NCBI GenBank assembly: GCA_021849745.1
Contig: JAJZSN010000009.1
Span: 1-50,458 of the forward strand
From: Bacillota bacterium
GTDB taxonomy: Bacteria > Bacillota > GCA-003054495 > Carboxydocellales > JAJZSN01
Reading direction: 5' to 3'
DNA: 50,458 nt
The position numbers and the translations under genes are program-made. The notes under the pieces are model-generated. The model saw nothing but the letters and a program-made list of their open reading frames with translations, was not told the origin of the DNA and ran no database searches. The first letter of the stretch is position 1. The number at the start of each line of letters is the position of its first letter. Below are positions 45,997-49,563 of this stretch, one piece after another.

Positions 45997-47919
45997 TTAA
46001 TTATTTCCTATTAATATTTTCGCCTTACCTGGAGTCCGCCGACTCAACTTGAAATTCTCTAAAACCGCAGCCACTATGCCTTCCGCCGACAAGCCAAATT
46101 TCTCCCGCAGCACCTTTATGGGGCCATGCTCCACGAACTCATCAGGAATCCCCAGCCGTTTAAAGGGTATTGCCTTAAGATTATGAGCCTCAAGAAGTTC
46201 CATTACTCCGCTGCCGAAACCGCCATGGAGAGCGTGTTCCTCAATAGTAAGGATACCCCCTGTATTACGAGCAGCCTCCAAGATAGCCTCCTCATCAAGG
46301 GGCTTAGCAAACCTGGCGTTAATTACACGAAGATCAATACCTTGCTCAGCCAAGATTTCCGCCGCTTCCAAAGCGGGATAAACCATGGTCCCCAGAGCCA
46401 GCAAAGTCAAGGTTTGACCTGGGCGCAGTATTTCCGCCCGGCCAATGGGCAGGGAATCCAACTTGGCATCCAAAGGAACCCCTACACCCGCTCCCCGGGG
46501 ATAACGTAAAGTAACCGGGCCGGCATAATCCACCGCAGTCTTCAGCATATGCCGCAGCTCATTCTCATCCTTAGGAGCCATAATTATCATGTTAGGGATA
46601 TGGCGCAGATAGGCTAGGTCAAATACCCCATGATGGGTAGGCCCATCCTCCCCCACGAAGCCCGCCCTGTCCAGGGCCAGTATCACCGGCAGTTTCTGGA
46701 GGCAGACATCATGGAGCACCTGGTCATAAGCCCGTTGAAGGAAGGTGGAATAAACCGCCACCACAGGCTTAAAACCTTGAGTGGCCATACCGGCGGCCAT
46801 AGTTACCGCATGTTGCTCGGCAATACCCACGTCAAAAAACCTCTGAGGAAACTCCTTGGCAAACCGATTTAATCCCGTACCACTAGGCATGGCTGCCGTA
46901 ATAGCCAGAATCTCAAGGTTATCTTTAGCCAAATCAGTCAAGGCTCCTCCAAAAATTTCTGTATATGAAGGTGGCCCATCCTCTTTATGTACCTCACCGG
47001 TCTTGACCTCAAAAGGACTGATGCCATGAAACTTATCCGGATTGGTTTCTGCCGGTTGATAACCCTTCCCCTTACGGGTAAGTACATGTACCAACACCGG
47101 TCCGCCATGATTTTTGGCATCCTGGAGAACTTGGCGGATTGCCGCTGTATTATGACCGTCAATGGGTCCAAAATAAGTAAAACCCAGTTCTTCGAAAAGC
47201 ATCCCCGGTACTACCAGATATTTAAAACTATCTTTAATCCGCTCCAACACCCGCACCACGTTAGGACCTATGCGGGGAATCCGGCTGATTATATGTTCAA
47301 TATCCTCTTTGCCCTTAAAATATTTAGGGTCTGAACGCATCCGGGATAAGTAGCCGGACAAGGCTCCAACATTTTCGGCAATGGACATCTCGTTATCGTT
47401 TAAGACCACTATCAAGTTAGTTCCTAGATGCCCTGCATGGTTCAGGGCCTCAAAGGCCATACCCCCGGTCAAAGCCCCGTCACCGATAACAGCCACCACC
47501 GATGATTCATCTTGTTTCAAGTCCCGGGCCGCTGCCATACCCACAGCAGCAGAAATAGAGGTACTGCTGTGACCCGTATCAAAAGCATCATGGTCACTTT
47601 CAGTCCTCTTGGGGAAACCGGAAATCCCGTCTAGTTGACGTAAGGTATGGAACTCATTCCGTCTACCGGTTAACAACTTATGTACATAAGATTGATGTCC
47701 CACATCCCAAACAATTTTATCTCTGGGTGTCTCAAAAACCAAATGCAAAGCAAGGGTTAATTCCACTACACCCAAGTTAGGTGCCAGATGCCCACCGTTA
47801 CTTGCCACCGTCTCAATAATTTCTTGTCGGATTTCTTCCGCCAATTGCTGTAATTCGCGGTGTTCAAACTTCCTAATGTCCCGGGGGGAGTTGAGCTTGT
47901 CCAGCAATCTGGTTCTCAT
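45997..47919 (-). CDS. dxs: 1-deoxy-D-xylulose-5-phosphate synthase
   Basis: A 640-residue TPP enzyme condensing pyruvate and glyceraldehyde-3-phosphate in the MEP isoprenoid pathway. Visible: DVGHQSYVHKLLTGR, TPP motif VAVIGDGALTGGMAFEALNHAG...VLNDNEMSIAENVGALS, GPIDGHN, AEQHAVTMAAGMATQG, and DRAGFVGEDGPTHHGVFDLAYLRHIPN. Length is normal. Its start overlaps the oapA stop (ATGA). It works with IspA, encoded at 49564. Confidence 0.97.
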   Translation of the reverse strand: MRTRLLDKLNSPRDIRKFEHRELQQLAEEIRQEIIETVASNGGHLAPNLGVVELTLALHLVFETPRDKIVWDVGHQSYVHKLLTGRRNEFHTLRQLDGISGFPKRTESDHDAFDTGHSSTSISAAVGMAAARDLKQDESSVVAVIGDGALTGGMAFEALNHAGHLGTNLIVVLNDNEMSIAENVGALSGYLSRMRSDPKYFKGKEDIEHIISRIPRIGPNVVRVLERIKDSFKYLVVPGMLFEELGFTYFGPIDGHNTAAIRQVLQDAKNHGGPVLVHVLTRKGKGYQPAETNPDKFHGISPFEVKTGEVHKEDGPPSYTEIFGGALTDLAKDNLEILAITAAMPSGTGLNRFAKEFPQRFFDVGIAEQHAVTMAAGMATQGFKPVVAVYSTFLQRAYDQVLHDVCLQKLPVILALDRAGFVGEDGPTHHGVFDLAYLRHIPNMIIMAPKDENELRHMLKTAVDYAGPVTLRYPRGAGVGVPLDAKLDSLPIGRAEILRPGQTLTLLALGTMVYPALEAAEILAEQGIDLRVINARFAKPLDEEAILEAARNTGGILTIEEHALHGGFGSGVMELLEAHNLKAIPFKRLGIPDEFVEHGPIKVLREKFGLSAEGIVAAVLENFKLSRRTPGKAKILIGNN

Positions 47920-48512
47920 CTTTCTCCCTTCTCTCTTCTCCGTCGATTCTTTTGTCTACTGAAAACCTTAAGCCCTGTGATCTCTTCGAATTTAGCCAAA
48001 ATCTGACCAACCTTGAAGATTATGTCTTCAGAATGATCTATGGCCAGCTTCTTCCCGGCAGCTTTGCCTCCAACGGTGAGGGCGGAAACTAAACCGGTCA
48101 TAACCAGGCTAAAGATGCTCTCATAAGCTGATAAGTTACCGGTGGCAATTTCAAATATAATAGCTGCCCCTAAAGCTCCGCTGACCGTACTAGCGATATC
48201 GCCCACCAGGTCGTTGGAAAAGTTAGAAACTTTATCGGCATTGGCCACTAACATCACTGCTTGTTGTGACCCCTTAACCCTTTTGGCCCCCTTGGCGTGA
48301 AAGGGATGATGCTCCGCAGCAGTAGCGGCTGTCCCAATCATATCAAAAATAATGCCAATAAAAATAATAAACAATAATAAAATAACAGCTAGGATTATAC
48401 TCTGAAACTTAGAAACCACCAACTCCGAAGCAGCACTAATGGAAATAGCTACAAAAAAAGTACCCAAACCAACAAAAAACGCCCGCTTCCAGGGGTTTTT
48501 ATTATTACCCAA
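47916..48512 (-). CDS. oapA: OLE-associated protein A (OapA)-type membrane protein
   Basis: A 198-residue polytopic protein with hydrophobic segments (AFFVGLGTFFVAISISAASELVV; IILAVILLLFIIFIGIIFDMIGTAATAA; ASTVSGALGAAIIFEIATG; IFSLVMTGLVSALTV), a polar middle (EHHPFHAKGAKRVKGSQQAVMLVANADKVSNFSNDLVGD), and a very basic tail (RQKNRRRREKGER). Size, layout and position between dxs and a large structured RNA match OapA, which binds OLE RNA at the membrane. TTG start with GAGGTGA eight bases before it. The identification leans on the gene neighbourhood. Confidence 0.82.
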   Translation of the reverse strand: MGNNKNPWKRAFFVGLGTFFVAISISAASELVVSKFQSIILAVILLLFIIFIGIIFDMIGTAATAAEHHPFHAKGAKRVKGSQQAVMLVANADKVSNFSNDLVGDIASTVSGALGAAIIFEIATGNLSAYESIFSLVMTGLVSALTVGGKAAGKKLAIDHSEDIIFKVGQILAKFEEITGLKVFSRQKNRRRREKGER

Positions 48513-48549
48513 AATTATTCACCTCATACGGAAAGGCAGCTGTCTTTTA

Positions 48550-48695
48550 GCTGTCAGCTATCAGCAAAAAAAATATTCTGCCGTCTTATTGGGTCAAAAC
48601 AAACTTTAGTTTGTTAAAATCCCGGCTGATAAAGCCGGCCCTGAAAAGCTGAGAGCTGACAGCTGACAGCTTCTTATAAGTATACTTATAAGAAG
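48550..48695. repeat. Heptanucleotide repeats, hairpins and a 26-base perfect palindrome between oapA and OLE RNA
   Basis: Heptamer RCTGAYR repeats lie at 48550-48565 and 48648-48670. Between them is a hairpin (CCGGCT 48622-48627 / AGCCGG 48633-48638), followed on the minus strand by GGGATTTT and possibly ending the RNA transcript, and AACAAAC/GTTTGTT. At 48670-48695 is a perfect 26-base palindrome (half-site CTTCTTATAAGTA). Confidence 0.75.
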
Positions 48696-48700
48696 ATGGC

Positions 48701-49313
48701 AGCATACGGAGTAAATGTTGTGGCTTAGGTCCAGCTGGTTTTCCCAGAGGATGACCGGACGTCGCCGTCCTGGCGGTTTCCCTTTAACTTCCTCTCTGCA
48801 TCGTCACCGAATGCAGGACTAGATTACCACTTAGTCCACACTTTAATCCCCCGTATGCCTCAGGTTGCCCTAAACAGCCTAGGAATTTTCTTCAACAGCT
48901 TCCTCATCTTCTAGCCTCTTTTGCAGTGAAAGTTTCAAGCAGCAGAACCGGAAATTTATGGCGCCATAACTTCCCGGGCCGATTTCCTGCTATCCGCCAG
49001 CACCACTCAAGGCAGGCTACACTGCACCCAGCCCACTGCCGTAACAGCGAACCACATACAGGTTTAACACCAAGCCGTAGATCACACCTTCTCAGATAGT
49101 CTCCACGCACTTGGGCCTCCGCGGAGGCAGGGTCCACGCCTTCATGCCATTGAAGATCGCCCTACCACCTTAACTCCCAGCACCAACCCCCGACTGGGCG
49201 TCGCAAGCCAGCACCAGGAACTTCATCGATGTGCCCTTTGACGGATTTTTAGGCCCGCCTTCAAAGATGGAAATACCGACTAGGATACTGCACCACCTAG
49301 TTCTTAGGAGTAT
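48701..49313 (-). ncRNA. OLE RNA (ornate, large, extremophilic)
   Basis: About 610 bases of GC-rich, non-coding sequence in an AT-rich gap, between ispA and an oapA-type gene followed by dxs, which is the known setting of OLE RNA. The size is right. Structure can be read directly in the 3' part: an outer stem pairs 48836-48858 with 48702-48723 (GCATACGG... with ...CCGTATGC), enclosing GGACTA/TAGTCC, CTGCAT/ATGCAG, AGGA/TCCT and a GGACG-GCGA-CGTCC GNRA-type hairpin (48757-48770). OLE RNA binds OapA and other proteins at the membrane and is linked to stress tolerance (alcohol, cold, magnesium). Ends are approximate. Confidence 0.85.
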
Positions 49314-49563
49314 GACATATTGTCGCTATCAGTTGTCAGCCATCAGCAAAAAATAAATAACTGCTGATAATATCTGAATTAACTAATAAACTATGAATTG
49401 AATTAAAAGTATATCACATAATTAAGCATAAATAAAGGTTCAATTATTGATAAATAAACCAACTTTTAGTCAAAACATAGTTAATAATCTAATTTATTTG
49501 AGATTTACTTATTGCGATGTTTATATGGTTATGATTTATTTCATTATTTTAACTAAACAAACT
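49314..49563. promoter_or_regulatory. AT-rich leader between ispA and OLE RNA
   Basis: No gene is supported. On the minus strand a TGATATACT box (extended -10, near 49415) could start an OLE transcript, with a poor -35. A heptamer repeat (TATCAGT, TGTCAGC, CATCAGC; about 49325-49346) lies between it and the RNA. Confidence 0.4.

What the first reader, a model, noticed from the sequence alone, without database searches (positions are those of the whole stretch)
47916..49563. OLE RNA with its OapA partner in an isoprenoid gene cluster
A GC-rich structured region of about 610 bases with no credible gene lies between ispA and a small basic polytopic membrane protein that precedes dxs. This is the established OLE RNA neighbourhood, and several stems including a GNRA-type hairpin can be paired by eye. 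OLE is among the largest and most structured bacterial non-coding RNAs and its function is only partly known. Finding it in this anaerobic spore-former, flanked by heptamer repeats and a 26-base palindrome, makes a useful new representative.
Basis: partly seen in the sequence, partly recalled or inferred. Interest (0 to 1): 0.8.

Follow-up and report, generated by a model that had tools for sequence, protein, structure and literature searches.

The report
Complete OLE RNA beside OapA gene
This stretch encodes a complete OLE RNA, a large noncoding RNA of a known bacterial family, next to the gene for its membrane partner protein OapA; it is likely an ordinary working member that helps the cell cope with stress at the membrane, and its main unusual trait is a changed loop, shared with its close relatives, that is predicted to join two OLE molecules.

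Summary
The finding is right in kind. Rfam's OLE model matches the minus strand at 48680-49312 over its full length (526.9 bits, gathering score 50). Gene order: ispA, OLE, oapA, dxs, tlyA, one strand. The RNA departs at 0 of 191 columns near-invariant in 117 other OLE RNAs. OapA carries the DxxxD motif. OapB is in the same genome. OapC cannot be judged: rpsL, its expected neighbour, is missing from the 86%-complete assembly; 3 of 3 order relatives have an L7Ae gene there. MpfA's CorC_HlyC domain was not found.

OLE is common here: 284 of 398 sampled phylum genomes. This is a new member of a known kind.

Two small extras bear on the OLE dimer. All 4 genomes held of the order have a GGCGCC P9 tip where most OLE RNAs have GGCC. 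P5.1 and P6.1 loops exchange A-U for C-G across OLE RNAs.

The heptamers are a genome-wide repeat (269 exact matches), not part of OLE. The 26-base palindrome is real and found only here in the assembly; its function is unknown.

The parts
48680..49312 (-). OLE RNA, full-length type
   Evidence: RF01071, 526.9 bits, model 1-616; 0 of 191 near-invariant columns changed
47916..48512 (-). oapA, 198 aa, TTG start; predicted partner of OLE
   Evidence: Position after OLE; DxxxD (D101, D105) invariant in 43 aligned sequences; weak CNNM match, 16.2 bits against a cut-off of 28.4
49564..50454 (-). ispA, polyprenyl (farnesyl) diphosphate synthase
   Evidence: PF00348, NF045485
45997..47919 (-). dxs, 1-deoxy-D-xylulose-5-phosphate synthase
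   Evidence: TIGR00204, 893.5 bits
45176..45991 (-). tlyA, rRNA methyltransferase
   Evidence: TIGR00478, 276.3 bits
48956..48969 (-). P9 tip of OLE, 14-base palindrome with GGCGCC at 48960-48965; predicted self-kissing loop
   Evidence: Sequence; apex by folding; same tip in the 3 order relatives
49191..49202 (-). P5.1 loop segment; x (A) at 49195
49143..49152 (-). P6.1 loop segment; y (U) at 49149
48670..48695 (.). 26-base perfect palindrome overlapping the OLE 3' end
   Evidence: not in the 138 other OLE 3' flanks examined, longest there 12
48543..48565 (+). heptamer array, one arm of an inverted pair in the OLE-oapA spacer
48648..48670 (-). heptamer array, the other arm
49325..49347 (+). 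degenerate heptamer array between ispA and OLE

Best explanation
The window encodes a complete OLE RNA next to its partner gene oapA, and the RNA likely folds into a homodimer that OapA is predicted to hold at the cell membrane, where the complex would tune magnesium handling and stress responses. Shown here: the RNA, its intact conserved core, the ispA-OLE-oapA-dxs-tlyA order, and OapB in the same genome. Inferred from work on other species: co-transcription with the neighbours and processing, OapB binding at P12.2/P13, OapC at the kink turn, membrane localisation and the stress role. Inferred from comparative sequence: dimer contacts at the P9 tip (GGCGCC in this order) and between the P5.1 and P6.1 loops. 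The heptamer arrays are read as insertions into the spacers, probably not needed for OLE.
For: RF01071 at 526.9 bits. 0 of 191 near-invariant columns changed. An OapA homologue follows OLE on the same strand in 42 of 42 distinct loci chosen by OLE; dxs is seen after it in 38 of 42, ispA before it in 30 of 39 with enough flank. DxxxD invariant in 43 aligned sequences. OapB homologue, E 5.1e-11 to PDB 7k9b. No CorC_HlyC domain found, as the published OLE/MpfA anticorrelation predicts (PMC11332333). Self-complementary P9 tip in the 4 genomes of the order. P5.1 C goes with P6.1 G in 12 of 12.
Against: OapC not found, with its locus missing from the assembly. The spacer to oapA is the longest among 28 compared (334 against 182-289 from a common anchor), and the 3' end runs into a palindrome that 138 other flanks lack. 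14 of 121 distinct P9 segments have no palindrome at the apex, and 42 of 118 have no Watson-Crick pair at the P5.1/P6.1 site, so neither contact is universal. Nothing here shows transcription, binding or a phenotype.
Confidence: 0.85

Rival explanations
1. The hairpin and the inverted heptamer arms just after OLE would act as its 3' processing or stability element, so they would be part of the working gene and not a chance insertion.
For: The minus-strand RNA of 48513-48710 folds at -68.3 kcal/mol, z -4.9, with 0 of 200 shuffles as stable. H. halodurans OLE comes from a polycistronic RNA (PMC12265935) and is processed at its 3' end (PMC11332333).
Against: No palindrome over 12 bases in 138 other OLE 3' flanks, the order relatives included. 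Heptamer arrays occur all over the genome. No terminator-like site on this strand in the spacer.
Confidence: 0.15
2. A decaying locus: the insertions at the 3' end and in the spacers would have spoiled OLE's processing or its link to oapA.
For: Long spacers on both sides and a 3' end that runs into the palindrome.
Against: 0 of 191 near-invariant columns changed; oapA is open and conserved; oapB is kept.
Confidence: 0.05
3. OLE works mainly as a ribozyme, with the dimer and OapA as its scaffold. This is a published speculation; a c-di-AMP synthase was proposed.
For: Size and conservation, as argued in PMC11332333 (abstract and results).
Against: No catalysis is described in what I read, and no call here can test it.
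Confidence: 0.1

Closest known systems
OLE RNA (Rfam RF01071), full-length type
   Same: Whole model matched, all 191 near-invariant columns kept, oapA directly downstream, isoprenoid genes around it.
   Different: P9 tip GGCGCC instead of the common GGCC; spacers enlarged by heptamer repeats; a 26-base palindrome at the 3' end.
OapA, CNNM-like membrane protein
   Same: DxxxD motif and position after OLE; CNNM domains rank first in the structure comparison.
   Different: Pfam CNNM match below its cut-off. No difference seen from other OapA proteins.
Heptanucleotide short tandem repeats (STRR) of cyanobacteria, recalled and from no call
   Same: Short dispersed arrays of a seven-base unit.
   Different: Another unit and another phylum; not compared by any search.

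Membership tests
OLE RNA (RF01071) | Covariance model over the gathering score | tested here: met
   526.9 bits against 50, full length
OLE RNA (RF01071) | Highly conserved nucleotides kept | tested here: met
   0 of 191 columns changed; 117 other distinct sequences
OLE RNA (RF01071) | Next to oapA | tested here: met
   oapA 167 nt downstream, same strand
OLE RNA (RF01071) | OapB encoded in the genome (known in about 60% of OLE species, PMC11332333) | tested here: met
   C125:5484-5792, E 5.1e-11 to 7k9b; weaker matches to L14e proteins also appear
OLE RNA (RF01071) | OapC encoded in the genome (known in about 45%) | tested here: inconclusive
   Only YlxQ over the cut-off; rpsL missing from the assembly; present in 3 of 3 order relatives
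OLE RNA (RF01071) | Homodimer through the P9, P5.1/P6.1 and P4 loops | tested here: inconclusive
   Sequence only: P9 tip palindromic, P5.1/P6.1 A-U, P4 A-rich loop present; no biochemistry
OLE RNA (RF01071) | Discrete RNA, bound by OapA at the membrane | not testable with these tools
   Needs RNA-seq and binding assays
OapA | DxxxD motif | tested here: met
   D101 and D105 invariant in the window's protein and 42 homologues
OapA | Four transmembrane helices, CNNM-like fold | tested here: inconclusive

The most novel reading that the evidence does not exclude
This order has re-coded OLE's self-recognition: the P9 kissing palindrome went from GGCC to GCGC in step, and within the same order the P5.1/P6.1 contact swaps A-U for C-G, so OLE works in cells as a homodimer whose contact code evolves lineage by lineage. 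These RNAs would be ready-made natural compensatory mutants of the dimer.
Probability: 0.45. Interest if true: 0.45.

Novelty: new member of a known kind. Interest (0 to 1): 0.22.

Why it matters
OLE's biochemical job is still unknown, but the family and its OapA neighbourhood are well described, so one more intact member changes little. The useful part is comparative: a P9 palindrome that is not among those named in the main-text sections I read, and a repeated A-U/C-G exchange between the P5.1 and P6.1 loops. Both bear on whether the dimer seen by cryo-EM is the form used in cells.

Tried and rejected
Promoter or terminator: 2 promoter-like and 3 terminator-like sites in 47800-49700, against shuffle means of 2.7 and 2.1, so nothing stands out. 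A mobile element with a conserved core beside the heptamers: 21 distinct array flanks, compared by eye, share none. Heptamer in print: an exact 16-base text search and a keyword search found no paper. OLE RNA together with Thermincola: no paper. OapB by the KOW profile: only two hits, which I read as NusG and L24; it was found by position and by its PDB match instead. L020 as OapC: rejected, it is YlxQ-like and sits after a nusA-like gene. Search of the own family: only this genome is held. OapA against PDB sequences: no match at E <= 1. bS21 in the own genome: not searched.

Rows dropped: of 145 sequences scanned for OLE anchors, 9 had none. Of 139 then held, 8 lacked the 5' anchor, leaving 131 that collapse to 118 distinct. 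P9 was counted on 121 distinct segments of 139. These are not a random set: most are the best-scoring matches, and 16 loci came by OapA similarity. The OapA alignment uses 42 of the 120 listed homologues (760 found).

Full report
Identity. One Rfam family reaches its gathering score in the window: OLE, RF01071, minus strand 49312 to 48680, 526.9 bits, all 616 model positions. A permissive scan of 48450-49600 gives nothing else at E <= 1. ispA lies upstream and oapA, dxs and tlyA downstream, all on the minus strand.

Integrity. I aligned 118 distinct OLE sequences, the window included. Of 191 columns that are at least 97% conserved in the other 117, the window departs at none. This speaks for a working RNA.

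OapB: a 102-aa gene lying between genes I read as map and infA matches the solved OapB 7k9b at E 5.1e-11, ahead of L14e proteins at 2e-5 and weaker; no Pfam family matches it. OapC: the only L7Ae hit over the cut-off in the own genome is YlxQ-like. rpsL, beside which OapC is expected, is missing too, and the assembly is 85.8% complete. All three order relatives have an L7Ae gene between genes I read as rpoC and rpsL. No CorC_HlyC domain was found, while 11 of 14 control genomes gave one; this fits the published OLE/MpfA anticorrelation (PMC11332333), though the assembly is incomplete.

How common. In a sample of 398 genomes of the phylum 284 hold OLE; in the order 4 of 4. The closest OapA with a name is a partial protein of a Thermincolia bacterium, 93% identical over 69% of the query (P0002).

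The P9 contact. Cryo-EM of Clostridium acetobutylicum OLE shows a homodimer with a symmetric kissing loop L9.3, and its authors report that the tetranucleotide there switches from GGCC to GAUC or AGCU (PMC12286853, sections 5 and 8). Of 121 distinct P9 segments, 95 hold GGCC at the folded apex, 5 AGCT, 4 GCGC, 14 no palindrome, and 3 are other (GATC, CTAG, or no loop). Of the four GCGC rows one (L121, another family) is part of GCGCGC; the other three are the window and two order relatives. The fourth genome, G051, has the same P9 as G004, so all 4 genomes held of the order carry GGCGCC there. The string also occurs in P9 of L151 and L069, but not as their apex class. Against the contact: of the 14 without a palindrome, seven have a GCC triloop and all seven are of one family (f15).

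The P5.1/P6.1 contact. The review PMC12265935 (section 4) says that these loops kiss between the two molecules. In my alignment the last base of P5.1 GCCCx and the base y of P6.1 AAyGGC vary. x is C in 12 of 118, and y is then G in 12 of 12. x is A in 106, with y U in 64, A in 26, C in 10 and G in 6, so 42 of 118 have no Watson-Crick pair. Fisher's exact p is 2e-12, without correction for relatedness. Parsimony on a tree of the same RNAs gives 6 changes of x: 3 with a matching change of y on the same branch, 2 gains of C where y was already G, and 1 loss of C with y left as G. The 12 come from 7 families. The window has A and U; the sister genus (L054, L155) has C and G. The pairing register is my inference. 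Sections 5 and 8 of PMC12286853 do not mention covariation here, its main text has no 'bridge B2', and the passages of PMC12412911 that I saw do not either; a text search listed no other paper that I recognised as treating it, and supplements were not open to me.

Flanks. GCTNTCAGCTNTCAGC matches 269 times exactly in the own genome, overlapping matches counted apart, and never in the backwards control, so the heptamers are a genome-wide repeat. Two arrays face each other between OLE and oapA, and a degenerate one lies between ispA and OLE. From a common anchor, oapA starts at 334 against 182-289 in 27 relatives; ispA ends 718 before it against a median of 575, with 8 of 39 longer. The 26-base palindrome overlaps the OLE 3' end, has no second copy in the assembly, and the longest palindrome in 138 other 3' flanks is 12. 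The spacer RNA folds well (z -4.9), in part through the inverted arrays. I read the arrays as insertions; a role in 3' processing is possible and untested.

Mechanism. From what I read on H. halodurans and cryo-EM (PMC12265935 section 3 part 1, sections 4 and 6; PMC9723947 section 5 part 1; PMC12054373 section 6), OLE is held at the membrane by OapA, binds OapB, OapC and bS21, and matters under cold, alcohol and excess magnesium. I infer the same here, because the conserved positions, the partner gene and OapB are in place. Nothing here tests it in cells.

Verdict. A real, intact, ordinary OLE locus: a new member of a known kind, with two small comparative points on the dimer.

Noticed in passing
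window 3596-3625, 48543-48565, 48648-48670, 49325-49347, and genome-wide: Tandem heptamer arrays (GCTNTCA units), 269 exact double-unit matches in the assembly and none in the backwards control; some arrays face each other 50-200 bases apart.
   Followed up: partly
L211 (NZ_AP023421.1, 504-kb plasmid of Pusillibacter faecalis), 3486-4150: An OLE RNA (399.8 bits) followed by a CNNM-domain gene, dxs and tlyA on a record called a conjugative plasmid; perhaps a second chromosome.
   Followed up: partly
L059, L090, L103, L107, L113, L123, L130: Seven OLE RNAs of one family (f15) have a GCC triloop at the P9 tip and no palindrome; they may have lost the P9 contact.
   Followed up: no
L186-L203 (genomes G118, G152, G183, G214, G234, G265, G305, G014, G397): Partial or split OLE matches; in G183, G214, G234 and G265 pieces lie at contig starts, so assemblies seem to break inside OLE. 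In G118 and G152 the match stops within a contig after the P9 region.
   Followed up: no
window 48670-48695: Perfect 26-base AT-rich palindrome exactly at the OLE 3' end, absent from 138 other OLE 3' flanks.
   Followed up: partly
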